NCBI GenBank assembly: GCA_025964675.1
Contig: JAOPYI010000033.1
Span: 1 to 64,000 of the forward strand
Length of the DNA: 64,000 nucleotides
Origin: Sphaerisporangium sp.
GTDB taxonomy: Bacteria > Actinomycetota > Actinomycetes > Streptosporangiales > Streptosporangiaceae
Reading direction: 5' to 3'
Part shown: positions 25,407 to 36,512 of the stretch, one piece after another
Layout: every line of letters begins with the position of its first letter
Numbering within the stretch: the first letter of the stretch is position 1
The notes under the pieces: generated by a model
Database searches by the model: none
What the model was told of the DNA's origin: nothing
The model's input: the letters and a program-made list of their open reading frames with translations, nothing else
Position numbers and translations under genes: made by a program

Positions 25407-26864
25407 TCAGGTCTGGAGGGCGAGGTATTTGATCTCCAGGTATTCGGCGATGCCCTCCTCGCCGCCTTCGCGGCCCAGACCGGAGTGCTTCACCCCGCCG
25501 AACGGGGCCGCGGGGTTGGAGACGAGGCCCCGGTTGATGCCGACCATGCCGGTCTGCAGTGCCTCTCCCACGCGCATGGCCCTGCTCAGGTCCCGGGTGT
25601 AGGCGAACGCCACGAGCCCGGCCGTGGTCGCGTTGGCCGCCGTGATCATGCTGGGCTCGTCCGGGTACGTCGCTATCGCCGCCACGGGGCCGAAGATCTC
25701 CTCGCTGGTCAGCGACGCGTCCTCGGGGACTCCTGTGACGACGGTCGGAGCGTAGAAGAAGCCGGGACGGTCGAGCGTGGAACCGCCTACCTCGATGGTC
25801 GCGCCCTTGTCGTCCGCGTCCGAGACCAGGCTCGCCACCTTCGTACGGGCGGCCTCGTCGATCAGCGGGCCTACCTGTGACTCCGGGTCCAGCCCTGGGC
25901 CGACCCGAAGCGCGGCGAACCTCGCGCGCAGCCCGGCGCTGAACCGTTCCGCCACCGCCTCGTGGACGATGAACCGGTTCGCGGCCACGCAGGATTGGCC
26001 CATGTTGCGCATCTTCGCGAGCATCGCCCCCTCGATCGCGGCGTCCACGTCCGCGTCGTCGAAGACAAGGAATGGGGCATTACCCCCCAGCTCCATGGAC
26101 ACTCGCAGCACGTGCCGCGCGCTCTGCTCCAGCAGGGCGACGCCGACGGCCGTCGAGCCGGTGAAGGACAGCTTGCGCAGCCGCCCGTCGCCCAGCAGCG
26201 CGTCGGTCAGCCGTGCCGGGTCGGCGGTCGGCAGCACGTTGACGACGCCGTCCGGCACGCCCGCCTCGGCGAGCAGCGCGGCGAGCGCGAGCCCGCACAG
26301 CGGGGTCGCCTCGGCCGGCTTCAGGATGACCGTGCAGCCCGCGGCCAGGGCCGGCCCGATCTTGCGGGTGAGCATCGCCAGCGGGAAGTTCCACGGCGTG
26401 ATCAGGTAGCACGGCCCAACCGGTTGCCGGGTGGTGACGATGCGGAAGTCGCCGCCCGGCGCCACCCGGTAGTCGCCGCCGATCCGGACGGCCTCCTCGG
26501 CGAACCAGCGCAGGAACTCCGCCGCGTACGCCACCTCGGCGCGCGACTCGGCCAGTGGCCTGCCCATCTCGAGCGTCGCGAGCCGGGCGAGCTCGTCGGT
26601 GCGCTCGGCCATCAGCTCGTACGCCCGGTGCAGGATCTCCGAGCGAACCCGGGGCGCCGTCGCCGCCCACGACTCCTGCACGGCCTCGGCGGCGTCGAGG
26701 GCGCGGACCGCGTCCGCCGGGCCCGCGTCGGCGACCAGGGCGAGTCGCTCGCCGGTCGCCGGATCGACGACACCGAACGTCGCGGCCCGCCCGGACGCCC
26801 CCTCGGACCAGGAGCCGCCGATGAACACGCCGCGCGGTACGTCCGCCGGGACTGTGTTGGACAT
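25407..26864 (-). CDS. NAD(P)-dependent aldehyde dehydrogenase, succinate-semialdehyde type
   Basis: 485 residues from ATG 26864. Aldehyde dehydrogenase superfamily of the GabD/succinate-semialdehyde group: PWNFPLAMLTRKIGPALAAG, general base Glu in MELGGNAPFLVF and the catalytic Cys in MGQSCVAANR. The C-terminus has PFGGVKHSGLGREGG, typical of this group. It oxidises an aldehyde to an acid in the cytosol. It is the last gene of the ten-gene operon, 12 bases after the iron alcohol dehydrogenase. An alcohol dehydrogenase followed by this enzyme suggests alcohol to aldehyde to acid steps, possibly ending in a C4 acid. Confidence 0.9.
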   Translation of the reverse strand: MSNTVPADVPRGVFIGGSWSEGASGRAATFGVVDPATGERLALVADAGPADAVRALDAAEAVQESWAATAPRVRSEILHRAYELMAERTDELARLATLEMGRPLAESRAEVAYAAEFLRWFAEEAVRIGGDYRVAPGGDFRIVTTRQPVGPCYLITPWNFPLAMLTRKIGPALAAGCTVILKPAEATPLCGLALAALLAEAGVPDGVVNVLPTADPARLTDALLGDGRLRKLSFTGSTAVGVALLEQSARHVLRVSMELGGNAPFLVFDDADVDAAIEGAMLAKMRNMGQSCVAANRFIVHEAVAERFSAGLRARFAALRVGPGLDPESQVGPLIDEAARTKVASLVSDADDKGATIEVGGSTLDRPGFFYAPTVVTGVPEDASLTSEEIFGPVAAIATYPDEPSMITAANATTAGLVAFAYTRDLSRAMRVGEALQTGMVGINRGLVSNPAAPFGGVKHSGLGREGGEEGIAEYLEIKYLALQT

Positions 26865-26876
26865 GTGCGCTCCTGG

Positions 26877-28019
26877 TCAGTGGGCGGCGGTGAGGATGGC
26901 GTGGACGTCGTCCGCGCTGGGCGGGCGCGGCGTGTTCGCCATCACCTCGTCGTCGAGCGCGTCCCGGGCGAGCAGCGCGAAGTCCATCTCCGAGATGCCG
27001 TGGTCGGCCAGGCGGCCGGTGAGGCCGACCCGGGCACCGAGTCCGGCCACCGCGTCGATGGCGGCGTCCGCGTTCCACTCGTCCGTCCTGGCGGTGTCGC
27101 CGACCCCCAGCGCGAAGGCGACCTGGGCGGTGCGCGCGAGCCGTACGGGAAGGTTGAACCTGAGCACGTGCGGGAGCAGCATGGTCAGCGCGACCCCGTG
27201 CGCGATGTTGAACCGGCCCCCGAGCGGGTGCCCGATCCCGTGGCAGATGCCGAGGCCGGTGGCGGCCATGCCGACCCCGGCCATGTGGGCGGCGAGAAGC
27301 ATCTGGGCGCGCGCCTGCAGGTCGCCGCCGTCGTCGTACGCCTGGGGCAGGTGCCGGGAGACCATCCTGATGACCTGGAGCGCGATCCCGTCCGACCAGG
27401 GGTTCGCCCGGATGGACGAGAACGATTCCAGCGCGTGGGTGAGCGCGTCCATCCCGGTGGCGGCCGTCGGGCCCTTCGGGAGGCCGGTGGTCAGTTCGGG
27501 GTCGAGTACGGCCGCGCGGGGCAGCGAGGTGGCGTGGCCCACGTAGAACTTGCGGTGGCTCTCCACGTCGGTGATCACGCCGAAGGCGTTCGTCTCCGCG
27601 CCGGTTCCGGCCGTCGTCGGGACCGCGATGATCTGCAGTGCGGGAACGGCGAAGTCGGCGCGGTAGTCCAGGTCACGGCCGCGCTGAGGGTTCACCGCCG
27701 CGACCGCGATCCCCTTGGCCGCGTCCAGGGCCGAGCCTCCGCCGAGCGCGATGATCAGCTGTGACGCCGCCTGCTCGGCGACGTCGGCGCCCTCGGCGAT
27801 GTCCTGGGTGGTGGGATTGGCGTGCACGCCGGCGTACACGGCGGTCTCCAGGCCGGACAGCGCGTTCCGCACCGTGTCCAGCACGGGGGTGGCCGCGATA
27901 CCGGGGTCGGTGACGATCAGCACGCGCTCGGCGCCGGCCTCCCGGGTCAGCGCGCCGAGCGTTCCGGCCGCGCCCTCGGCGAGGTGGGCGGCCGGCATCG
28001 GGGTGAGGGTCAGGTTCAT
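26877..28019 (-). CDS. Iron-containing alcohol dehydrogenase
   Basis: 380 residues from ATG 28019, which overlaps the stop of the preceding gene (ATGA). Group III alcohol dehydrogenase/maleylacetate-reductase-like fold: dinucleotide motif GGGSALDAAKG, PTTAGTGAE, and the metal-binding residues in TGMDALTHALES (Asp, His) and LGICHGIGHPLGG (two His). It interconverts an alcohol and an aldehyde or ketone with NAD(P). The substrate is set by the pathway and not known. It is part of the tightly coupled catabolic half of the operon. Confidence 0.9.
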   Translation of the reverse strand: MNLTLTPMPAAHLAEGAAGTLGALTREAGAERVLIVTDPGIAATPVLDTVRNALSGLETAVYAGVHANPTTQDIAEGADVAEQAASQLIIALGGGSALDAAKGIAVAAVNPQRGRDLDYRADFAVPALQIIAVPTTAGTGAETNAFGVITDVESHRKFYVGHATSLPRAAVLDPELTTGLPKGPTAATGMDALTHALESFSSIRANPWSDGIALQVIRMVSRHLPQAYDDGGDLQARAQMLLAAHMAGVGMAATGLGICHGIGHPLGGRFNIAHGVALTMLLPHVLRFNLPVRLARTAQVAFALGVGDTARTDEWNADAAIDAVAGLGARVGLTGRLADHGISEMDFALLARDALDDEVMANTPRPPSADDVHAILTAAH

Positions 28020-28915
28020 GCCGTCTCCTTCAGTCGCAGTGGGGTGCCGGTGAGGTCTTCCCACAGCTTGACGGGGGTCATCTCGCCCGCCAGGTCGCCG
28101 TAGGCGGCGCGGGCGCGGCGGTACACCTGCTCGACGATGGCGGAGAGCTCGACGGGTACGCCCGTGGCGCGGGCGAGGTCGACGGCCAGCCCGAGATCCT
28201 TGCAGGCGAGGGCGATCGCGAACGACTCGTCGTAGTCCCCGTGGAGCAGGACCGACAGCACGTCGCTCTCCAGGAAGTTGCTGTTCGCCGGGCTCGCGAT
28301 CAGCGCGCGGCGCAGCACGTCCAGGTCGACGCCGGCCTGGACGCCGACCGTGAGCACCTCGGTGGTCGCGACCAGGTGGCAGAACCAGAGCAGGTTGATC
28401 ATGAGCTTGACCGCGTACCCCGCGCCGTTCGCGCCGACGTGCAGGACGCGTTCCGGGTCGCCCATGACGTCCAGGACCGGGCGTACCCGGTTGAAGACGG
28501 CCTGGTCGCCACCGGCGAAGATCTGGAGCGTTCCGGCGCGGGCGCCCTTGGCCATCCCGGAGACCGGCGCGTCCAGTACGTGTACGCCGTGCGCGACGGC
28601 GGCCTCGCGGACCTTGTCGTCCGGGACGCTGGTCGACATGTCGATCCAGACGGCGCCGGGCGCGAGGCCGTCGAGCAGGCCGTCCGGGCCGAGCAGCACC
28701 GACTCCACGTGCCGCGGCGTGGGGAGCATGGTGATCACCACCTCGCGGTCCGCCCCGGTCGCCCGGGGAGTCGCCCGCCAGGTCGCGCCCAGGCTCACCA
28801 GCTCCCCGGCCGTCTCCTGCCGTACGTCGTGCACCGCCACGTCGTGGCCGGCGGCGAGCAGGTTGCGGCTCATCGGGCCGCCCATGTTGCCGAGGCCGAT
28901 AAAACCGATCTTCAC
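28016..28915 (-). CDS. Beta-hydroxyacid dehydrogenase (3-hydroxyisobutyrate type)
   Basis: 299 residues from GTG 28915, which overlaps the stop of the upstream aldehyde dehydrogenase (GTGA). VKIGFIGLGNMGGPMSRNL is the N-terminal NAD(P) motif, DAPVSGMAKGARAGTLQIFAG the substrate-binding signature, and GYAVKLMINLL carries the catalytic lysine. Members oxidise 3-hydroxyisobutyrate, tartronate semialdehyde, L-serine-like or other beta-hydroxy acids. The surrounding dehydrogenases suggest it handles a hydroxyacid produced by the enolase-superfamily step. Confidence 0.9.
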   Translation of the reverse strand: MKIGFIGLGNMGGPMSRNLLAAGHDVAVHDVRQETAGELVSLGATWRATPRATGADREVVITMLPTPRHVESVLLGPDGLLDGLAPGAVWIDMSTSVPDDKVREAAVAHGVHVLDAPVSGMAKGARAGTLQIFAGGDQAVFNRVRPVLDVMGDPERVLHVGANGAGYAVKLMINLLWFCHLVATTEVLTVGVQAGVDLDVLRRALIASPANSNFLESDVLSVLLHGDYDESFAIALACKDLGLAVDLARATGVPVELSAIVEQVYRRARAAYGDLAGEMTPVKLWEDLTGTPLRLKETA

Positions 28916-30393
28916 AGGTTGATCCAAGTCGTCTTGAGAGCCGAGTAGGCGTCGAGCGCGTGCAGGGACTTGTCGCGACCGTGCCCGGAGTCTTTGAAGC
29001 CGCCGAAGGGGGTCATCACGTCGCTGGCGTCGAAGGTGTTGACCCACACGGTGCCGGCGCGCAGCGAGCGGGCGACGCGGTGCGCGGTGGAGAGCCGCGA
29101 CGTCCAGACGGCGGCCGCGAGGCCGTACCTCGACTCGTTGGCGAGCCGGACGCCTTCCTGCTCGCCGGTGAAGGTGATGGTGGACAGCACCGGGCCGAAG
29201 ATCTCCTCCTGGCCGATCCGGCTGTCGTTGCGCACGCCGTCCAGGATGGTCGGGGCGACGAAGTAGCCGCCGGACTGCTGCCTGATCCGCCCGCCGCCGG
29301 TGACGACCTCGGCTCCTTCGCCGCGGCCGATGTCGAGGTAGCCGAGCACGCGGTCGAGCTGGGCCGCGTCGACGATGGCGCCCATCTCGGTGGCGGGGTC
29401 GAGCGGGTCACCGACGGCGATGCCCTCGGCGACCTTGACGACTTCGGCCAGCAGTTCGTCGTGGATCCGGGCGTCCACCACGAGGCGGGATCCGGCGTTG
29501 CAGGTCTGCCCCGCGTTGTAGAAGATCCCCCAGGCGATCGCGGACGCGACCGCGGGGAGGTCCTCGGCGTCGGCGAGCACGAGCTGCGGGGACTTGCCGC
29601 CGAGCTCGAGGGAGACCTGCTTGCCGTTGGACTCGGCCGAGTAGGCCAGGAAGCGGTGGCCGACCTCGGTGGACCCGGTGAATGCGATCTTGTCAACGCC
29701 GGGATGGCGGCCGAGCGCCGCCCCCGTGACGGGGCCGAGGCCCGGAACGACGTTCAGTACGCCGTCGGGGACGCCCGCCTCGGCGGCCAGCTCGGCCAGG
29801 CGCAGCGCCGACAGCGAGGACTGCTCGGCCGGCTTGAGCACGACCGAGTTGCCCATGGCCAGCGCCGGAGCGATCTTCCACATGGTGATCATCAGCGGGT
29901 AGTTCCACGGGACGACGGCGCCGACCACACCCAAGGGCTCACGGGTGATCATCGCGAGGGCGTCCCGGGAGGTGGGCGCTATCTCGTCGTAGGTCTTGTC
30001 GAGCGCCTCGGCGTACCACTGGAGGCAGCCGGCCGCGCCGGGCACGTCGACCCGCAGCGACTCGCCGATCGGCTTGCCGACGTCGAGCGTCTCCAGCAGC
30101 GCGAGCTCCTCCAGGTTCTCCCTGATCAGCTCGGCGAGACGCAGCAGCACGGCCTTGCGGTGGCGGGGCGCGGCGTTCGCCCACCCGCCGTCGTCGAAGG
30201 CCGTCCTGGCGGCCACCACGGCCCGGTCCACGTCGTGGGCCGCCGCCGCGGACACCTCGGCGATGACCGTGCCGTCACGCGGGCTCACCGTGGTGAAGGT
30301 GGCTCCATCGGCGGCGCCGGTGAACGCGCCGTCGATGAACAACTCGGTTCGCGGCGCGATCCTCGCCGCCCTCTCATGCCACTGTCCGGACAT
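28912..30393 (-). CDS. Aldehyde dehydrogenase, PuuC/betaine-aldehyde type
   Basis: 493 residues from ATG 30393, chosen because AAAAGG lies six bases upstream; ATG 30399 directly follows that site and has no room. PWNYPLMITMWKIAPALAMG, SLELGGKSPQLVLADAED with the general-base Glu, and GQTCNAGSR with the catalytic Cys place it in the class that includes gamma-glutamyl-aminobutyraldehyde and betaine-aldehyde dehydrogenases. With an osmoprotectant-type importer in the same operon, an amino- or ammonio-aldehyde is a reasonable but unproven substrate. Confidence 0.9.
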   Translation of the reverse strand: MSGQWHERAARIAPRTELFIDGAFTGAADGATFTTVSPRDGTVIAEVSAAAAHDVDRAVVAARTAFDDGGWANAAPRHRKAVLLRLAELIRENLEELALLETLDVGKPIGESLRVDVPGAAGCLQWYAEALDKTYDEIAPTSRDALAMITREPLGVVGAVVPWNYPLMITMWKIAPALAMGNSVVLKPAEQSSLSALRLAELAAEAGVPDGVLNVVPGLGPVTGAALGRHPGVDKIAFTGSTEVGHRFLAYSAESNGKQVSLELGGKSPQLVLADAEDLPAVASAIAWGIFYNAGQTCNAGSRLVVDARIHDELLAEVVKVAEGIAVGDPLDPATEMGAIVDAAQLDRVLGYLDIGRGEGAEVVTGGGRIRQQSGGYFVAPTILDGVRNDSRIGQEEIFGPVLSTITFTGEQEGVRLANESRYGLAAAVWTSRLSTAHRVARSLRAGTVWVNTFDASDVMTPFGGFKDSGHGRDKSLHALDAYSALKTTWINL

Positions 30394-30426
30394 GTCCATC
30401 CTTTTCTGGAAGCATCCTCATGCGAC

Positions 30427-31536
30427 TCAGGTCAGGGACCAGCGGCGTACCGCGTCGTGGTCGATCCCGGCGCCGAGTCCCGGAGCGTCGGGCACGTTCA
30501 GGTAACCGTCCGGGTCGACCTCCAGCGAGCGCGTGAGGAAGAAGTCACGGCGCTGCGGGGTCCACCCCGGCGGGTCATAGGGGAACTCGACGTACGGCCC
30601 GCCACCCACGCCGGCGACGACGTGCAGGTTGGCGAGCACGCCAAGGCCGTTGCTCCACGTGTGGGGCGTGAACCAGCGGTGCTTGGAGAAGGCGAGCTCC
30701 GCCACCGTACGGGCACGCAGCATGCCGACCGACAGCACCACGTCCGGCTGGTACACATCCAGCGCGTCCGATTCGAGCAGGTGCAGAAGCTCGGGCATCG
30801 TGCGTACCATCTCGCCGCCCGCCACCCGGATGCCGGTCTGGGCGCGGACCATGCGCATGCCCGGGATGTCGTACTGGGGAAGCGGCTCCTCCAGCCAGAG
30901 CACGCCGAGTTCGGACAGCTCCTCGGCGAGCCGCCGCACGGAGGCGAGGTCGAGCGCCGCGTCGATGTCACCGGCCATCCGCCAGAGCTGGTTGAGGTCC
31001 ACCATGATCTCGATGTCGTCGCCGACGGCCTCGCGGGTGGCCCGTACCGCGGCGACTCCCTCACCGGTCCGCTCACGTGAGATACGGATCTTCATGGCCT
31101 TGAAGCCCGCCTCTTTGGCGGCGAGCGCGGCCTCCACCCGGGCGCCCGGCGGTTTGAGCTCGCCGAACGAGGCGTAGGCGGGCAACCGGTGTGCGGCGCC
31201 GCCGAACAGCGTGGCCACCGGCTGGCCGCACACCTTGCCGAAGATGTCCCAGAGCGCGGCCTCCAGCGGCCAGTAACGTCCCGCGTGGAAGTTCACGGTC
31301 TCCAGCGTCTTGACGTGGTTGACGATCGCGAGGGGGTCACGGCCCACGAACAGGTGCTCGTAGGCCGCGAAACCGTCCATCGTGTCGCCCGACCCGTATC
31401 CGGTGATGCCCTCGTCGGTCTCCACGGTGACCAGGGTCGCGTCGAACCAGGTGCGGGGCACGGGATCCCAGGCGGCGTTGAACGGCGGGTCCAGCGGTAA
31501 CCGCATCCGGTCCAGGCGGATCTCGGTGATCTTCAC
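30427..31536 (-). CDS. Enolase-superfamily enzyme (mandelate racemase/MLE group)
   Basis: 369 residues from ATG 31536, which overlaps the stop of the Fae homologue (ATGA). The capping N-domain is followed by a TIM barrel with metal ligands in MVDLNQLW (Asp), WLEEPLPQ (Glu) and AGGEM (Glu). In the usual KxK position it reads MKIRIS, a Lys followed by Arg. QPDVVLS and FTPHTWSNG provide the Asp-His dyad of the mandelate-racemase branch. Such enzymes abstract a proton next to a carboxylate and then racemise or dehydrate, commonly an acid sugar. The exact reaction cannot be told from motifs. Confidence 0.88.
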   Translation of the reverse strand: MKITEIRLDRMRLPLDPPFNAAWDPVPRTWFDATLVTVETDEGITGYGSGDTMDGFAAYEHLFVGRDPLAIVNHVKTLETVNFHAGRYWPLEAALWDIFGKVCGQPVATLFGGAAHRLPAYASFGELKPPGARVEAALAAKEAGFKAMKIRISRERTGEGVAAVRATREAVGDDIEIMVDLNQLWRMAGDIDAALDLASVRRLAEELSELGVLWLEEPLPQYDIPGMRMVRAQTGIRVAGGEMVRTMPELLHLLESDALDVYQPDVVLSVGMLRARTVAELAFSKHRWFTPHTWSNGLGVLANLHVVAGVGGGPYVEFPYDPPGWTPQRRDFFLTRSLEVDPDGYLNVPDAPGLGAGIDHDAVRRWSLT

Positions 31537-32036
31537 ATGCTCCCCGAAGCCGTGTAGAAGGGGTTGGCGGGCGCGTGCCGGGCGGCCAGCGCCTCGTCGA
31601 GCGAAGGTGTACGGCTCGCGCCCGCGCGCAGCGCGGCGTGAGTCGCCTCCCGGTTGTTGGCGTAGACGGTGTCAGCGTCGGCGGCCTTGGGGTTGACCCA
31701 CACCGCGGCGATGAGGACGAGATCGTCGACCTCGGCCGGCGGGATGACCCCCTCGGCCACCGCATCCATGACGCCGGCGGCCACGCCTGCCTGCGCGGCG
31801 CCCCACGTCAGGTCGGCGTGGGTTTCGGATTCCACGGCCGCCTTGTTGACGAAGAGCGTCATCGGCTTGGCGGGCAGGCCCGGGCGCAGCACGGCGACGA
31901 ACGGCACGTGGCCGGCCGAGGGGGTGGCGAGGGCGGTGGCCCACGCCGTGCCGGCGGGGCCGTCCCGGTGGCCGATGACCGTGTTGACGTGCGCCGCTTC
32001 GGCCCCGTCGCCGATGAAGCTCTCCCCGATGTCCAC
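31533..32036 (-). CDS. Formaldehyde-activating enzyme (Fae) homologue
   Basis: 167 residues, the normal Fae length, from GTG 32036. It aligns end to end with methylotroph Fae from memory: GESFIGDGAEAAHVNTVIG (Fae has GEALVGxGNEVAHIDLIIG), AGHVPFVAVLRPGLPAKP (HTPLLAVLxPNxPCKP), GAAQAGVAAGVMDAVAEG and NREATHAALRAG. The catalytic histidine is kept (H16), but the Asp two residues later is Asn. True Fae joins formaldehyde to tetrahydromethanopterin, a cofactor not expected in actinomycetes, so this protein may use another carrier, scavenge formaldehyde, or do a different chemistry. It is the first enzyme gene after the importer. Confidence 0.88.
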   Translation of the reverse strand: MDIGESFIGDGAEAAHVNTVIGHRDGPAGTAWATALATPSAGHVPFVAVLRPGLPAKPMTLFVNKAAVESETHADLTWGAAQAGVAAGVMDAVAEGVIPPAEVDDLVLIAAVWVNPKAADADTVYANNREATHAALRAGASRTPSLDEALAARHAPANPFYTASGSM

Positions 32037-32050
32037 TTGATCAGCACCTA

Positions 32051-32096
32051 CCGCTTCTCTTGATGAGACCCTGACGCTTCACTTGATGAGGCCCTG
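32051..32096 (-). repeat. 23-bp imperfect tandem duplication at gene end
   Basis: On the minus strand CAGGGCCTCATCAAG (32096-32082), the last codons of the binding protein gene, recurs as CAGGGTCTCATCAAG (32073-32059) after its stop codon. The repeat unit is 23 bases with about 20 matching. The first copy holds the TGA stop; the second has AGA there. Confidence 0.7.
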
Positions 32097-33047
32097 CTTG
32101 ACGAGCCAGTCGTGGGCGACCGTCCGCGGCTCGAGACCATCGGCGTCGACCTTGGCGTTCAGGCTCTGCATCACCTGGTCGGTGAGCTTCTGCGCCACCG
32201 GGGCCATGATCGTCTCAACCTGCGGGTACTTGGCGTTGGTCTCCTGGCGCATGGTCAGGGCCGCGTTGTAGACGGGGAAGAAGTGCTTGTCGTCCTCCAG
32301 CACGGTGAGGCCGAGGGAGGCGATACGGCCGTCGGTCGCGAAGACCTCGCCGAAGTTGCAGGTCGAGCCCTTCTTCGTCTCGGTGTAGATAAGGCCCGTG
32401 TCGACGGACTTGACGTTCTCCTTGGGCACGTCGATCCCGTACGCGGCGGCCACGCCCGGCCAGCCGTCGTCCCGGGTGGAGAACTCACTCTCGATGCAGA
32501 ACGTCGCCTCGGCCGGCTTGGACTGCACCAGTCTGGCCAGGTCGGAGAGCTTGGTGACGCCGAGCTCGGCCGCCTTCTCCTTGCGGATGGCGAACGCGTA
32601 GGTGTTGTTGAGCGGAGCTCTGGTCCCCCAGAAGACCTTGTTCTGCGCCAGGTCGTCCTTGGCGACCGCGGCGTACTGCTGCTCGGGGTCCGCAAGCGGC
32701 TTGGTCTGCTTGAGGTAGGTGACCCAGCCGGTGCCGGTGTACTCCCAGTACATGTCGATCTGGCTCGACGTCAGGGCGGTGCGCGTGTTGGTCGAGCCCT
32801 TGATGTTCGTCTTGTCGACGACTTCCGCGCCGTGCGCGCGCAGCATCTCCATGGTGATCTGGCCGAGGATGATCGACTCGGAGAAGTCCTTGGAGCCGAC
32901 GATGAATTTGGCGGCCTTCAGTTCCTGGCCGAGACTGCCCTGCTCGGACGCGGACGCGGAGGTGCCGCCGCCGCATCCGGCAAGTGCCGTGACTGCGGTG
33001 ATCGCTGCGATCCCGGCCAGGATCGTGCGCCGGGTGGGTGTGTACAT
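32079..33047 (-). CDS. Osmoprotectant-type ABC substrate-binding lipoprotein
   Basis: 322 residues from ATG 33047. The N-terminus has TRRTILAG then a lipobox ending LAGC near residue 25, so it is a lipoprotein. The rest is OpuAC/ProX-like (type II binding fold): FIVGSKDFSESIILGQITMEM, GSTNTRTALTSSQIDMYWEY, GTGWVTYL and SLGLTVLEDDKHFFPVYNAA. Homologues bind glycine betaine, choline, carnitine or related solutes. A catabolic rather than osmotic purpose is likely here because enzyme genes follow 42 bases downstream. Confidence 0.92.
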   Translation of the reverse strand: MYTPTRRTILAGIAAITAVTALAGCGGGTSASASEQGSLGQELKAAKFIVGSKDFSESIILGQITMEMLRAHGAEVVDKTNIKGSTNTRTALTSSQIDMYWEYTGTGWVTYLKQTKPLADPEQQYAAVAKDDLAQNKVFWGTRAPLNNTYAFAIRKEKAAELGVTKLSDLARLVQSKPAEATFCIESEFSTRDDGWPGVAAAYGIDVPKENVKSVDTGLIYTETKKGSTCNFGEVFATDGRIASLGLTVLEDDKHFFPVYNAALTMRQETNAKYPQVETIMAPVAQKLTDQVMQSLNAKVDADGLEPRTVAHDWLVKQGLIK

Positions 33048-33092
33048 GGTGAGCCCTCCGAAGGGATCAGGGGGGTTTGCGGATGTCTTGGG

Positions 33093-33899
33093 TCAGATAC
33101 CTCTGGGGCGCAGGGCATTCTCGGTGACGCTGCCGAGCCAGTCGACGAAGAACGCGATGACCGCGGTCAGGACGCCACCGGTGACCAGCACCGGAGTTCG
33201 CTGCAGCTTGATGCCGTTAACGATGATGTCGCCCAGGCCGCCCGCGTTGACGAAGGTCGCCAGCGTGGCCACGCCCACCGCCATCACGAGCGCGGTGCGC
33301 AGCCCTGCGAGGATCACCGGCACCGCCAGCTTGATCTCGACCCGCCATAGCACCTGACCGCGGGTCATGCCCATGCCGCGTGCGGCCTCGATCAGCGTCG
33401 GATCCACCTGCTGGATACCGATGATCGTGTTCCGGAGCACCGGAAGCACCGCGTACGCGATCAGACCGATCAGCGCGATCTTGAATCCGATGCCGAACTG
33501 GATCGTCAGCAGCGCGAGCAGGCCGATCGCCGGAGTCGCCTGGCCGAGGTTGGCGAGGCCGAGCACGACCGGGCTGAGCCACCGCGCTCCCGGCCGGGAG
33601 AGGAGTATCCCGACGGGTATCGCGATGATGACGACGAGCAGCGTCGCGACCGCCGTGAGCTGGAGGTGTTCCAGGACCCGGGTGTGGATGTACTCCCAGT
33701 TCAGGGTCCGCTGCTCGATGCTGTCGAGGGTCCGGCCCAACACCCACAGGTAGAGGACGAGCAGGACGGCCGCGAGCGCAAGCGGGGTGCCGAGGTACCG
33801 GAGCGCCGGCCGCCGCCGGCCGCCGGGCTCGGCCGCCGTGGCGCCCGGAGAGGAGATGGCCGAGGGGGGAGCGGACGCCGTCCGCGTTTCACCGGACAC
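33093..33899 (-). CDS. Osmoprotectant-type ABC permease (second)
   Basis: 268 residues from ATG 33899, overlapping the ATPase stop by 11 bases. A hydrophilic N-terminal tail rich in Ala, Ser and Pro (about 35 residues) precedes six hydrophobic helices. The BPD-transporter EAA loop IEAARGMGMTRGQVLWRVEI is plain, and so is AVLPVLRNTIIGIQQVDPTL, typical of OpuCB/OpuCD. It forms the channel with the permease at 34910. Confidence 0.92.
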   Translation of the reverse strand: MSGETRTASAPPSAISSPGATAAEPGGRRRPALRYLGTPLALAAVLLVLYLWVLGRTLDSIEQRTLNWEYIHTRVLEHLQLTAVATLLVVIIAIPVGILLSRPGARWLSPVVLGLANLGQATPAIGLLALLTIQFGIGFKIALIGLIAYAVLPVLRNTIIGIQQVDPTLIEAARGMGMTRGQVLWRVEIKLAVPVILAGLRTALVMAVGVATLATFVNAGGLGDIIVNGIKLQRTPVLVTGGVLTAVIAFFVDWLGSVTENALRPRGI

Positions 33900-34917
33900 C
33901 GGACACCGGCCGCTCCCCGGCGGCGCCTGCCTGCTCCCTGGTGACGGACGCGCAAATCTCGGCGAACGTCACCACCCTCCCGTCGGCCACGATCTCCTGA
34001 CGGCCGTGGGCGACCATCGCGTCCAGCGCCTGGCGGAGCGTCGCGCTCCCCGCGATCTGGGGAAGGCCGTCGGTCGCGACCGTACTGGTGCCTGTGGTCG
34101 TGTCCTTTCCCGTGGACGGGGAGAGAACGGAGACCGGGATCAGGGCGAGCCGTTTCAGCGTGGCGTCGGTTCCGATGAACCCGGCGACGTAGTCGTCCGC
34201 GGGGGCCGCGAGGATGCGCGCCGGGGTGTCGTACTGCGCGATCCGGGAGCTCTCCCGCAGCACCGCGATGCGGTCACCCAGCTTGATGGCTTCCTCGAAG
34301 TCGTGCGTGACGAAGATGATCGTCTTCCTGAGCTCTCGCTGGAGCCTTAGGAACTCGTTCTGCAGCCGCTCCCGGGTGATCGGGTCGGTGGCTCCGAAAG
34401 GCTCGTCCATGAGCATGACCGGCGGGTCGGCGGCAAGTGCCCTCGCCACCCCGATCCGCTGTTGCTCGCCGCCGGAAAGCTGCCGGGGGAAACGGCCGCG
34501 AAACGCCGCGGGATCGAGCCCCACCAGTTCCAGCAACTCGTCCACCCGGCGGGCGATCTTGTCCTTGCTCCACTTGAGCAGCCCAGGTACGAGCCCGACG
34601 TTCTCGGCGATCGTCAGGTGCGGGAAGAGGCCGATCTGCTGGATGACGTAGCCGATGTGGCGGCGCAGCTCGTCCGGGCGCATGGCCAGCACATCGGTGC
34701 CACCGATGCGGATCGCGCCCGAGGTCGGCTCGATCAGCCGGTTGATCATTTTCATCGTCGTGGTCTTGCCGCAACCGGAGGGGCCGACGAAGACGACCAG
34801 CTCCCCCGCGGGTATGTCAAGCGTGACGTTGTCGACCGCGGGCTCGGCCTGGCCGGGATAGCGCTTCGTGAGCCCGTCAAGCTCGATGCGTGCGCCGCCG
34901 GAAGTGGTGTCAAACAC
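33889..34917 (-). CDS. Osmoprotectant-type ABC ATPase (OpuCA/ProV type)
   Basis: 342 residues from GTG 34917 (GAGGGG five bases upstream, overlapping the preceding permease by eight bases); ATG 34956 would overlap far more. Walker A GPSGCGKTT, Q-loop VIQQIGLFPHLT, signature LSGGEQQR and Walker B PVMLMDEPFGATDP with FVTHDFEEA mark the glycine-betaine class. The C-terminal about 85 residues (LPQIAGSATLRQALDAMVAH region) look like a single degenerate CBS-type domain, where OpuCA has two for ionic-strength sensing. Loss of one may fit a nutritional rather than osmotic role. Confidence 0.9.
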   Translation of the reverse strand: MFDTTSGGARIELDGLTKRYPGQAEPAVDNVTLDIPAGELVVFVGPSGCGKTTTMKMINRLIEPTSGAIRIGGTDVLAMRPDELRRHIGYVIQQIGLFPHLTIAENVGLVPGLLKWSKDKIARRVDELLELVGLDPAAFRGRFPRQLSGGEQQRIGVARALAADPPVMLMDEPFGATDPITRERLQNEFLRLQRELRKTIIFVTHDFEEAIKLGDRIAVLRESSRIAQYDTPARILAAPADDYVAGFIGTDATLKRLALIPVSVLSPSTGKDTTTGTSTVATDGLPQIAGSATLRQALDAMVAHGRQEIVADGRVVTFAEICASVTREQAGAAGERPVSGVR

Positions 34918-35557
34918 GGAGACCCCTCGCGGTGGTGAGACGACGGATGACGACATAGAAGAGGTCGAAGACGAGGGCCAGGACGACCACGCCGAGGGTG
35001 CCGGCGAGCGCGGAGTTGAGCGCGTTGACCGAGCCGAGCCGGGAGAGCCCGTCGAAGATCTGGTTGCCCAGGCCGGGACCCGCGACGTAGGCGGCGATGG
35101 CCGCGATACCGATGATCATCTGGGTCGAGACCCGGATGCCGGTGAGGATCACCGGCCAGGCCAGCGGGAGCTGCACCCGGGTCATCACGCCGACGGCGCT
35201 CATCCCGACGCCGCGCCCCGCCTCCACGATCGCAGGATCGACGCCCTTCAGTCCGACGACGGTGTTCCGCACGATCGGGAGCAGGGAGTAGAGGACGAGC
35301 GCGACCACCGAGGGTCCCCAGCCGAGGCCGAGGATCGGGATGAGCAGGCCCAGCAACGCGAACGAGGGGATCGTCAGGAACCCGCCGGACGTGCCGATGG
35401 CGAACGCCGCCCAGCGTGGGCTCCGGTAGGTCAGCATTCCGATCCCGACGCCAATGATCGTCGCGATGACCAGCGAGATGGCGACGACGAGCGCGTGCTC
35501 CAGCGCCGCCTGGGTCAGCAGATCCCATCGCGAGGCGATGTATTCGCTGAGGCTCAC
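34910..35557 (-). CDS. Osmoprotectant-type ABC permease (first)
   Basis: 215 residues from ATG 35557. Short OpuCB-like permease: about five hydrophobic helices with LYSLLPIVRNTVVGLKGVDP and the EAA loop IVEAGRGVGMSAVGVMTRVQ. It is the first gene of the ten-gene minus-strand operon; the divergent IclR gene begins 128 bases away, so the operon promoter should lie directly upstream. Confidence 0.92.
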   Translation of the reverse strand: MSLSEYIASRWDLLTQAALEHALVVAISLVIATIIGVGIGMLTYRSPRWAAFAIGTSGGFLTIPSFALLGLLIPILGLGWGPSVVALVLYSLLPIVRNTVVGLKGVDPAIVEAGRGVGMSAVGVMTRVQLPLAWPVILTGIRVSTQMIIGIAAIAAYVAGPGLGNQIFDGLSRLGSVNALNSALAGTLGVVVLALVFDLFYVVIRRLTTARGLRV

Positions 35558-35684
35558 AAGCTCCTCCTCCCGGTCGTTGGTAACGGAACGGTAGGACGGA
35601 GTTCTTCTGAGTGCAATACTAGTTGCGATGAATGCAATCGATTATCCATGGTCGAGTAGACGGCCAGCGGCTAACCTGCCTCCC
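35558..35684. promoter_or_regulatory. Divergent promoter and IclR-type operator candidate
   Basis: 127 bases between the importer operon and the iclR-like gene. Two TGCAAT copies (35612-35617 and 35633-35638) stand 21 bases apart, two helical turns, and TTGC (35623-35626) with GCAA (35634-35637) form an inverted repeat next to them. The stretch 35611-35650 is locally AT-rich. A repressor of the IclR family bound here could control both directions. Confidence 0.5.
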
Positions 35685-36512
35685 ATGGCACCTCCTGCGT
35701 CGAGTGAACCAGATCGTTTGGGCAGCTCACGGACCCAAGCCCCATCCGCGGGGCTGCGAAGGGACCTGGAGATCCTCGAGTTGCTGGCGAACGCCGACAC
35801 CCAGGGCGGGCTGGGAGTGAGCCGGATCGCCGAGATTCTCGGCCGCGAGAAGAGCCAGATGTCCCGCGCGCTCAAGGCGCTGGAGGCCGAGGGCATGGCC
35901 GAGCGCGACAGCGAGACCCTCGAATACCGCCTCGGGTGGCGGCTCTACGCTCTCGCGGCGCGTGGCGGGGAGACCCGGCTCGTCCAGATCGTCACGCCCT
36001 ACCTTCGCCGCATGGTGGGTGCGCTCAACGAGACGACCCATCTTTGCGTGCTACGCGGCTCGGCGGTGCTGACCTTGCGCTCGGTGTCGCCTTCGCACGC
36101 CTTCCGCGGTCTCGGGTGGGAAGGGGTGACCGTGCCGGCGCCGATGACCTCCGCGGGGCGGGTGCTGGTGTCGGACTGGGAACCCCAGGCGCTGCGCTCG
36201 CTGCTGGCGGAGGCCGGCACCCTGCCGGCCGGGCCACGCGCACGCGCCGCCGATGATCTGCTCACCGAGATCGCGGGCATCCGCAGGCGTGGTTACGCCG
36301 CGGTCAACGAAGAGTTCGAGGAGGGGCTGGTCGGCGTCTCGGCACCGGTACGGGACTTCAGGGGCGCCATCGTCGCCGCGATCAACGTTTCGGCGCCGAA
36401 GGGCCGTCTTGCAAGCCGGCTCGACGAGGCGGGACGGCTGACACTCACCGTCGCCCAGGAGCTGTCCGCCGAGCTCGGGTTCCACCCCCCAGGCGGACGG
36501 CCACTCCGGTAG
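35685..36512 (+). CDS. IclR-family transcriptional regulator
   Basis: 275 residues from ATG 35685. The upstream ATG 35628 lies inside the repeat region that looks like the operator, and the added residues are unlike the family. N-terminal winged helix-turn-helix (ISRIAEILGREKSQMSRAL-type segment with GVSRIAEILGREKSQMSRAL at about 47-66), then the effector domain (GSAVLTLRSVSPSHAFR, APMTSAGRVLVSDW, GYAAVNEEFEEGLVGVSAPV). IclR proteins bind a small catabolic effector. Its divergent position makes it the likely regulator of the importer-Fae operon. Confidence 0.9.
   Translation: MAPPASSEPDRLGSSRTQAPSAGLRRDLEILELLANADTQGGLGVSRIAEILGREKSQMSRALKALEAEGMAERDSETLEYRLGWRLYALAARGGETRLVQIVTPYLRRMVGALNETTHLCVLRGSAVLTLRSVSPSHAFRGLGWEGVTVPAPMTSAGRVLVSDWEPQALRSLLAEAGTLPAGPRARAADDLLTEIAGIRRRGYAAVNEEFEEGLVGVSAPVRDFRGAIVAAINVSAPKGRLASRLDEAGRLTLTVAQELSAELGFHPPGGRPLR

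What the first reader, a model, noticed from the sequence alone, without database searches (positions are those of the whole stretch)
25407..36512. Osmoprotectant-type importer wired to a Fae homologue, an enolase-superfamily enzyme and four dehydrogenases under an IclR regulator
Ten genes on one strand, most overlapping or with short gaps, join an OpuC-like importer to Fae and an enolase-family/aldehyde/alcohol/hydroxyacid dehydrogenase set. Fae is a methylotroph enzyme of the methanopterin pathway. Finding it at the head of a catabolic operon in an actinomycete suggests a route in which an imported, possibly N-methylated, solute is broken down with release or capture of a C1 aldehyde, or that this Fae branch has a different reaction. 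I know of no described pathway with this gene set.
Basis: partly seen in the sequence, partly recalled or inferred. Interest (0 to 1): 0.75.

Follow-up and report, generated by a model that had tools for sequence, protein, structure and literature searches.

The report
Betaine breakdown operon with repurposed Fae
A soil-type bacterium carries a conserved set of genes that probably imports and breaks down a positively charged, betaine-like compound, using a protein whose relatives handle formaldehyde in methane-related metabolism but which here has probably taken on a different job, possibly in consuming the head groups of phosphorus-free membrane lipids.

Summary
The gene cluster is real: an OpuC-type importer, a Fae homologue, a mandelate-racemase-type enolase (ENO), two aldehyde dehydrogenases, a beta-hydroxyacid dehydrogenase (HIBDH) and an Fe-alcohol dehydrogenase on one strand, with a divergent IclR gene and a conserved operator between. 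The Fae lies in a separate clade (100/100) in genomes without methanopterin genes (Mch 0 of 24, Ftr 0 of 24). In actinomycetes the clade comes with a core (Fae, HIBDH, succinate-semialdehyde-type dehydrogenase) plus one of two unrelated three-gene modules: A (ENO, ALDH1, Fe-ADH; this window) or B (SDR, alkyl-DHAP-synthase-like flavoenzyme, FGGY kinase). Among 27 genomes or records searched, 14 hold the A marker, 8 the B marker, 0 both, 5 neither. Module type changes three times on the core tree. Both modules can be read as ways to cleave a glyceryl ether, and the binding protein keeps a cation-pi tyrosine cage. The best-fitting substrate is glyceryl-trimethylhomoserine, the DGTS betaine-lipid head group, degraded to pyruvate (or DHAP), fumarate and trimethylamine. 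Substrate and reactions, including the Fae step, are inference; co-occurrence, exclusivity and missing Mch/Ftr are shown. No such pathway appeared in the listings seen.

The parts
34910..35557 (-). permease A of OpuC-type importer (GTG start, 215 aa)
   Evidence: frame read; orthologues 54-97% at the same place in related loci
33889..34917 (-). ABC ATPase, ProV/OpuCA type (start codon chosen by me; an ATG at 34956 is also open)
   Evidence: PF00005; TIGR01186 proV 304 bits, below its cut-off of 327
33093..33899 (-). permease B of the importer
   Evidence: PF00528; ProW 88 bits, below cut-off
32079..33047 (-). substrate-binding protein, OpuAC family; aromatic positions Y100, Y150, W196, Y221, Y260
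   Evidence: PF04069; PDB relatives incl. OsmF, ProX, OpuBC/OpuCC, EgtUC; conservation in 47 sequences
31533..32036 (-). Fae-like protein of a methanopterin-independent clade (core gene)
   Evidence: PF08714, TIGR03126; tree; model mean pLDDT 92.3
30427..31536 (-). module A: MR-subgroup enolase-superfamily enzyme (ENO), proposed O-alkylglycerate lyase
   Evidence: PF13378, PF02746; K149, R151, D180, N182, E216, E217, E242, D265, H292, E317 invariant in 16 aligned sequences
28912..30399 (-). module A: aldehyde dehydrogenase 1 (KauB/PuuC/BADH-like)
   Evidence: PF00171; PDB relatives
28016..28915 (-). core: beta-hydroxyacid dehydrogenase (HIBDH); best PDB relative 2-hydroxymethyl glutarate dehydrogenase 3cky
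   Evidence: GTG start overlapping the ALDH1 stop codon
26877..28019 (-). module A: Fe-dependent alcohol dehydrogenase (lactaldehyde reductase / NAD-methanol dehydrogenase type)
   Evidence: PF00465; TIGR02638 291 bits, below cut-off 523; PDB relatives
25407..26864 (-). core: aldehyde dehydrogenase 2, succinate-semialdehyde-dehydrogenase type
   Evidence: closest PDB chain 3jz4, succinate-semialdehyde dehydrogenase, 490 bits; C292, R167, R297, S449 invariant in 49 of 49 aligned
35628..36512 (+). IclR-family regulator, divergent; the true start may be downstream because the operator overlaps the first ATG
   Evidence: PF01614, PF09339
35611..35638 (-). conserved operator-like site ATTGCATTCATCGCAACTAGTATTGCAC (family pattern GTTGC-N7-GCAAC-N5-TTG)

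Best explanation
A catabolic operon for a glyceryl-ether betaine, most likely glyceryl-N,N,N-trimethylhomoserine (GTS, the deacylated head group of the betaine lipid DGTS). (1) The OpuC-type importer, beside an IclR gene, binds the trimethylammonium group through a tyrosine cage and takes the compound up. (2) Module A opens the glyceryl ether oxidatively: Fe-ADH turns the terminal diol into an alpha-hydroxyaldehyde, ALDH1 makes the 3-O-alkylglycerate, and the MR-type enolase takes the alpha proton and expels the ether oxygen at C3, giving pyruvate and homoserine betaine. In relatives module B does the same job by running ether-lipid synthesis backwards: SDR to the ketone, FGGY kinase to the alkyl-DHAP, AGPS-like flavoenzyme to DHAP and homoserine betaine. 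(3) The core finishes: HIBDH oxidises CH2OH to the semialdehyde, trimethylamine is eliminated (proposed role of the Fae-like protein) to fumaric semialdehyde, and ALDH2 makes fumarate. Shown: the genes, synteny, an operator-like site in the same place in many loci, A-or-B exclusivity, restriction of A and B to Fae-clade genomes in one sample, absence of Mch and Ftr, conserved cage and catalytic residues. Inferred: substrate identity, each reaction, the order of steps, and the Fae step.
For: Exclusivity: of 27 genomes or records, ENO orthologues (52-100% identity) in 14 and flavoenzyme orthologues (60-100%) in 8, both in 0, neither in 5; at locus level 22 A-only, 24 B-only, 0 both, 16 neither, of 62. 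The modules stay whole when unlinked: SDR+FADox+FGGY in S. clavuligerus and Leucobacter, ENO+ALDH1+FeADH in G312. Linkage: of 394 class genomes 10 have Fae; ENO is in 8 and the flavoenzyme in 1, all nine within those 10, none in the other 384. HIBDH (E<=1e-55) is in exactly the 22 of 27 with the A or B marker. Module type changes three times on a Fae+HIBDH tree, at least two forced by well-supported branches. Ether chemistry: the flavoenzyme is closest in the PDB to alkyl-DHAP synthase (163 bits; glycolate oxidase 96, D-lactate dehydrogenase 70), and all 22 aligned rows (21 distinct copies) have GGSMxHHHGxGKxR. Cation: Y100 47/47, Y150 46/47, Y260 47/47; the aligned tyrosines make cation-pi contacts in sensors built on the X513 protein (PMC8820738, passages). 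C4 semialdehyde acid: ALDH2. GTS is a real compound (PMC11711679, passages), and DGTS/DGTA-type lipids occur in soil (PMC9969633, passages).
Against: No biochemical datum; the substrate is chosen by fit. The closest PDB relative of HIBDH acts on a 2-hydroxymethyl acid, which fits the DGTA head group better. A Fae-fold trimethylamine lyase has no precedent known to me. ALDH2 is close to other SSADH-type copies: 16 of 27 genomes or records hold two or more matches at E<=1e-120, and in G062, G195 and G312 the best match is not in the Fae cluster. The FGGY kinase is nearer to xylulokinase and AI-2 kinase models than to glycerol kinase, all below cut-off. Five of 27 with the Fae clade have neither marker (G079, G398, G408, G621, and the single plasmid record W02). 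No convincing operator was found at the unlinked modules (L106, L107, L111) or in the proteobacterial or oxygenase-type loci, and a chance-like site of 18.1 bits inside an Ensifer gene (L067) scores as high as the weaker expected sites.
Confidence: 0.42

Rival explanations
1. Same architecture, but the solute is the DGTA head group, a glyceryl ether of 2-(hydroxymethyl)-N,N,N-trimethyl-beta-alanine. HIBDH acts on its classical substrate type, and the Fae-like protein removes the hydroxymethyl carbon as formaldehyde, which mycothiol-dependent formaldehyde dehydrogenase oxidises.
For: HIBDH best PDB match is 2-hydroxymethyl glutarate dehydrogenase; the Fae family handles formaldehyde; mycothiol-dependent FDH in the window's genome, 683 bits over a cut-off of 512.9 (other genomes not searched); soil DGTSA lipids include DGTA.
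Against: ALDH2 keeps the residues recalled to bind the succinate-semialdehyde carboxylate, pointing to a C4 chain; DGTA is, from recall, mainly marine/algal.
Confidence: 0.15
2. Another quaternary-ammonium or sulfonium solute with a vicinal diol or polyol part; A and B are equivalent modules for that part, and the Fae-like protein does a further C-N or C-O lyase step.
For: The exclusivity and cage evidence does not name the compound; SDR and FGGY resemble sugar enzymes.
Against: The AGPS-like flavoenzyme suggests an ether on a glycerol-type carbon; from recall, betaine-lipid head groups are the only abundant natural compounds with both features.
Confidence: 0.28
3. One reading: an N-methylated solute is demethylated and the Fae-like protein captures formaldehyde on another carrier such as folate or mycothiol.
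For: Fae family; in Acidimicrobiaceae and other actinobacterial MAGs the same clade sits next to a 2OG-Fe(II) oxygenase gene that could release formaldehyde.
Against: No demethylase recognised in the clusters; Mch and Ftr absent in 24 of 24; 30 positions switched between canonical Fae and the actinobacterial rows; does not explain the A/B modules.
Confidence: 0.1
4. Ordinary osmoprotectant uptake beside an unrelated sugar-acid catabolic operon.
For: Importer and enzymes have separate precedents.
Against: Importer, Fae and core stay together across several actinobacterial families with an operator-like site in the same gap; in the loci without the importer (L044, L071, L072) an MFS gene is found.
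Confidence: 0.04

Closest known systems
Methanopterin-linked formaldehyde-activating enzyme Fae (M. extorquens, PDB 1y5y)
   Same: Family and length; the histidine at window position 16 (recalled as the acid/base residue) is invariant in all 75 rows compared
   Different: Canonical plasmid-borne Fae are 32-38% identical to the window protein; separate clade; 30 switched positions; no Mch or Ftr in the 24 genomes tested
OpuC/ProX/OsmF and EgtU-type betaine importers
   Same: OpuAC binding protein, ProV-type ATPase, two permeases, tyrosine cage
   Different: Sits in a catabolic operon with an IclR regulator; further residues invariant in the 47 sequences (W101, C184, E186, C230)
Mandelate-racemase-subgroup acid-sugar dehydratases
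   Same: Barrel residues incl. a His-Asp dyad
   Different: KxR motif; conserved WDPxPR and DPPxW stretches; beside a betaine-type importer
Alkyl-dihydroxyacetone-phosphate synthase (AGPS) ether-lipid pathway (module B, relatives only)
   Same: Flavoenzyme relation and HHHG motif; SDR partner
   Different: Here with an FGGY kinase and a betaine-type importer; proposed to run in the cleaving direction
trans-4-hydroxyproline-betaine pathway HpbD (recalled, not tested)
   Same: Enolase-superfamily enzyme beside a betaine importer
   Different: No Fae, no glyceryl-ether module; epimerase chemistry

Membership tests
Fae family (PF08714 / TIGR03126) | profile score over curated cut-off | tested here: met
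   189.2 bits vs 27; 165.8 vs 118.05
Methanopterin-linked Fae | genome holds other pathway enzymes (Mch, Ftr) | tested here: not met
   0 of 24 genomes each; control genomes positive: 3 for Mch, 2 for Ftr
Methanopterin-linked Fae | clusters with characterised Fae in a tree | tested here: not met
   10 canonical rows split from 65 others, 100/100, branches 2.03 and 0.41 either side of the drawn midpoint root
Methanopterin-linked Fae | formaldehyde + H4MPT activity | not testable with these tools
   needs assay
OpuC/ProX-type quaternary-ammonium importer | OpuAC-family binding protein with ProV-type ATPase and two permeases | tested here: met
   (scores below the NCBIfam equivalog cut-offs)
OpuC/ProX-type quaternary-ammonium importer | aromatic cage residues | tested here: met
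   Y100 47/47, Y150 46/47, W196 43/47, Y221 47/47, Y260 47/47; Tyr65/Tyr357 from passages of PMC8820738; my count lands one residue off for Tyr357
MR-subgroup enolase superfamily | metal ligands and His-Asp dyad | tested here: met
   invariant in 16; roles assigned by comparison and recall
Succinate-semialdehyde dehydrogenase | closest to SSADH; carboxylate-binding Arg/Arg/Ser (recalled) | tested here: inconclusive
   met (49 of 49), but below the NCBIfam cut-offs (547 vs 646 for TIGR01780)
Alkyl-DHAP synthase (module B, relatives only) | best PDB relatives and HHH motif | tested here: met
   22 of 22 rows, 21 distinct; that HHH marks AGPS is recalled
Alkyl-DHAP synthase (module B, relatives only) | predicted fold matches AGPS | not tested
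   structure prediction not accepted
Betaine-lipid head-group catabolism | growth on or turnover of GTS | not testable with these tools
   needs experiment

The most novel reading that the evidence does not exclude
This is the first pathway for breaking down betaine-lipid head groups: two evolutionarily unrelated ether-cleaving modules (an enolase-superfamily O-alkylglycerate lyase, or an alkyl-DHAP synthase run backwards) feed one core in which a methanopterin-free Fae acts as a trimethylamine (C-N) lyase, in Actinobacteria from small-genome lineages to large actinomycetes, with a version of the core in Burkholderiaceae and Ensifer.
Probability: 0.3. Interest if true: 0.9.

Novelty: new variant of a known kind. 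Interest (0 to 1): 0.7.

Why it matters
Phosphorus-free betaine lipids (DGTS/DGTA) were identified in soil and were mostly more abundant in dry soil (PMC9969633, passages). A 2024 paper on an algal enzyme that releases glyceryl-trimethylhomoserine says that it remains to be tested whether another enzyme, GHL1, hydrolyses that product (PMC11711679, passages); I saw no bacterial route in the listings. If right, the fate of a pool of organic carbon, nitrogen and trimethylamine becomes testable gene by gene. Even if the substrate is another betaine, the work shows that proteins annotated 'formaldehyde-activating enzyme' in these actinomycetes should not be read as a sign of methanopterin-based methylotrophy, and it predicts a new activity in that fold. 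The strict exchange of two unrelated modules on one core is a directly testable case of functional replacement.

Tried and rejected
Methanopterin pathway: rejected for the genomes tested. 'Minimal core' loci (S. clavuligerus, Leucobacter): first taken as a third type, then found to carry module B elsewhere. DMSP, carnitine, choline, trigonelline, vitamin B6 pathway II and pantoate routes were weighed by reasoning only: none explained both modules. 2,3-Dihydroxypropyl-trimethylammonium would explain module A but leaves the core without a role. The promoter/terminator scan was uninformative (0 promoter-like, 5 terminator-like against 2.6 expected). The operator search found no convincing site at unlinked modules. 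A wider order search added nothing (1 of 248, already known). Literature listings showed no account of this Fae branch, but most were capped: 30 of 11,934 papers listed; 15 of 15; 15 of 55; 10 of 1,050; 25 of 1,489; 12 of 439; 15 of 31; 12 of 74; 5 of 5. The two papers that hold both Fae-like and DGTS terms concern the unrelated glutathione-dependent Gfa (passages).

Dropped or hand-set. Tree: of the places found, L001-L010 (short duplicates of other rows or genomes) and L060, L064, L074 (under 140 aa matched) were left out; identity cut-offs were set by me after seeing the tables; 17 of 27 have a match at E<=1e-40, but only 8 are >=60% identical; the rest are 28-35% and were treated as paralogues. 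L058, L059 and L077 were labelled A, and L019-L023, L044 and L065 B, partly from unlinked or partial modules; L075 and L077 have long branches; 16 training sites were picked by eye from the 20 sequences (L028, L047, L050, L063 not used). The figure 3.1e-6 takes no account of kinship. In some searches only the top 4-5 candidates per genome were scored.


Full report
What is there. On the minus strand of window 25407-35557 lie ten genes: permease A, ATPase, permease B, binding protein, Fae-like protein, MR-type enolase (ENO), aldehyde dehydrogenase 1, beta-hydroxyacid dehydrogenase (HIBDH), Fe-alcohol dehydrogenase and aldehyde dehydrogenase 2; an IclR gene diverges. Gaps are -11 to 45 nt.

Who else has it. 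A scan with the Fae protein fetched 54 loci from named genomes (it depends on the peptide patterns used). The nearest is Sphaerisporangium perillae, 98% identical. IclR / importer / Fae order is kept in Actinomadura, Lentzea, Umezawaea, Microbacterium, Arthrobacter, Kibdelosporangium, Nonomuraea, Subtercola and others. In the Leucobacter locus and in G057 and G225 an MFS gene is found where the importer is missing; in Caballeronia, Burkholderia and Ensifer plasmid records the clade sits as Fae + aldo/keto reductase + an ALDH2 relative of 50-52% identity, with an MFS gene in the four Burkholderiaceae records looked at. In 394 genomes sampled from the class, 10 have Fae.

The Fae is not the methanopterin enzyme. 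Ten canonical rows (six from annotated H4MPT gene clusters; three from two plasmid records where the stretch shown has no such annotation; and M. extorquens Fae) form one side of a 100/100 branch; the 65 other rows including the window form the other. The histidine at window position 16 is in all 75 rows. At 30 positions one residue that is near-invariant in the canonical rows gives way to another in the 60 non-proteobacterial rows, e.g. F to W at window 32, 78 and 113, Q to H at 73, Y to R at 129; the five proteobacterial rows share some of these (W78, W113, H73) and mostly not others (32, 129). Mch was found in 0 of 24 and Ftr in 0 of 24 genomes with this Fae. The window's genome has mycothiol-dependent formaldehyde dehydrogenase. 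The AlphaFold model has mean pLDDT 92.3; its fold search was not accepted.

Core and two modules. The companion genes sort into a core (Fae, HIBDH, ALDH2) and two modules. Module A is ENO + ALDH1 + FeADH. Module B is an SDR (KduD-like), a FAD enzyme and an FGGY kinase. Of 62 Fae loci, 22 hold only A genes, 24 only B genes, 0 both, 16 neither, some of these on short contigs. Searches of 27 whole genomes or records gave ENO orthologues in 14, FAD-enzyme orthologues (60% or more) in 8, both in 0, neither in 5; weaker FAD-enzyme matches of 28-35% also occur, among them in the window's own genome. S. clavuligerus and Leucobacter hold a complete module B away from Fae, and G312 a complete module A on another contig. 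In the 394-genome sample ENO occurs in 8 and the FAD enzyme in 1, all nine among the 10 Fae-positive genomes. HIBDH occurs in exactly the 22 with the A or B marker. ALDH2-type matches at E<=1e-120 occur in 24 of 27, often in several copies, so ALDH2 is a less specific marker. On a Fae+HIBDH tree of 49 loci the module type changes three times, at least two forced by well-supported branches. The simplest reading is that the modules do the same job for the same core.

One operator. A site GTTGC-N7-GCAAC-N5-TTG lies between iclR and the importer. A matrix built from 16 such sites scores 38.9 at window 35611-35638 (a training site); the next best in 64 kb is 13.1, and five shuffles reach up to 17.1. 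In loci not used to build it, a site lies in the expected gap with 24-34 bits in L044, L075, L076, L077 and L108 (five shuffles each reach at most 11.4), and with only 14.7-18.1 in L071, L072 and L073 (one shuffle of L072 reaches 18.7). In L071 and L072 a second site lies by the ALDH2-MFS unit, and in L108 by HIBDH. Against this, an Ensifer gene far from Fae (L067) gives 18.1, so the weaker sites alone would not convince; S. clavuligerus (L065) has 14.1 in front of its importer (shuffles to 11.4). No convincing site was found at the unlinked modules, at proteobacterial Fae loci or in the oxygenase-type loci.

What is imported. The binding protein is OpuAC-type. Across 47 sequences Y100, Y221 and Y260 are invariant, Y150 is 46/47 and W196 43/47. 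Y100 and Y150 align with the tyrosines (Tyr65, Tyr357) that make cation-pi contacts in sensors built on the X513 choline/betaine protein (PMC8820738, passages only; my residue counting is off by one for the second). E. coli-type OsmF has W, L and K at positions 150, 196 and 221. A quaternary ammonium (or similar) solute is therefore likely.

What the modules do. The module B flavoenzyme is nearest in the PDB to alkyl-DHAP synthase, 163 bits, ahead of glycolate oxidase, 96, and D-lactate dehydrogenase, 70 (the printed matches cover the FAD domain), and all 22 aligned rows (21 distinct copies) carry GGSMxHHHGxGKxR. With an SDR and a sugar-type kinase this reads as ether-lipid synthesis in reverse on a glyceryl ether. 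Module A reads as the oxidative alternative on the same terminal diol: FeADH of the lactaldehyde-reductase type, ALDH1, and an MR-type enolase with its catalytic set invariant, a type of enzyme that takes a proton next to a carboxylate and can expel a group from the next carbon. ALDH2 is of the succinate-semialdehyde type with C292, R167, R297 and S449 invariant in 49 of 49, including five proteobacterial copies. A glyceryl ether of a quaternary-ammonium C4 acid is glyceryl-trimethylhomoserine. The DGTA head group is the close rival, favoured by HIBDH's resemblance to 2-hydroxymethyl glutarate dehydrogenase.

What remains inference. No enzyme here has been assayed on these compounds. The Fae step is assigned by elimination: the route needs one C-N cleavage (or one formaldehyde-releasing step) and the Fae-like protein is the only core gene without another role. 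The clade also occurs beside a 2OG-Fe(II) oxygenase gene in Acidimicrobiaceae and other actinobacterial MAGs (seven loci; family of the oxygenase checked on two); the three genomes of this kind that were searched lack HIBDH, ENO and close flavoenzyme matches. That would fit C-N chemistry or formaldehyde handling.

Literature. The listings (most capped, open-licence library only) showed no description of this Fae branch or of bacterial breakdown of betaine-lipid head groups. PMC11711679 (passages) reports that ABHD1 releases glyceryltrimethylhomoserine from lyso-DGTS. PMC9969633 (passages) reports DGTS/DGTA-type lipids in soil. PMC10132767 (passage) mentions DGTS only as a lipid made under phosphorus starvation.

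Noticed in passing
L024, L025, L032, L049, L060, L062, L064 (upstream of Fae): In Acidimicrobiaceae and other actinobacterial MAGs the same Fae clade lies next to a 2OG-Fe(II) oxygenase gene (HalD-like PF23169 in the two checked); the three genomes of this kind that were searched (G398, G408, G621) lack HIBDH, ENO and close flavoenzyme matches.
   Followed up: partly
window 35611-35638 / 35628: The conserved operator-like site overlaps the first ATG of the iclR frame, so the regulator probably starts at a later codon.
   Followed up: no
L075 (G062, 1.4 Mb genome) and G364 (1.3 Mb): A small-genome actinobacterial genus has the Fae clade and ENO in both genomes; L075 shows importer, Fae, ENO, ALDH1, HIBDH and FeADH together, which suggests that the solute matters in its habitat.
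   Followed up: no
L096-L099, G000:C311:35461-36771: Distant (28-35%) alkyl-DHAP-synthase-like flavoenzymes occur in several of these genomes; the four looked at (L096-L099) have an HHHG motif.
   Followed up: partly
L038, L054: Fae-clade genes in MAGs labelled Binatia and Deltaproteobacteria, with none of the core or module genes recognised nearby on short contigs; a peroxiredoxin gene lies upstream of Fae in L038.
   Followed up: no
L074 / L112 (G079): A divergent Fae-clade gene (only 125 aa aligned by tblastn, though the HMM match covers 1-155 of 159) in a genome with neither module marker nor HIBDH.
   Followed up: partly
PDB 8ub7: A chain named Avd that carries a Fae-like stretch is one of only two distinct PDB sequences matched by the window's Fae at E<=0.001.
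   Followed up: no
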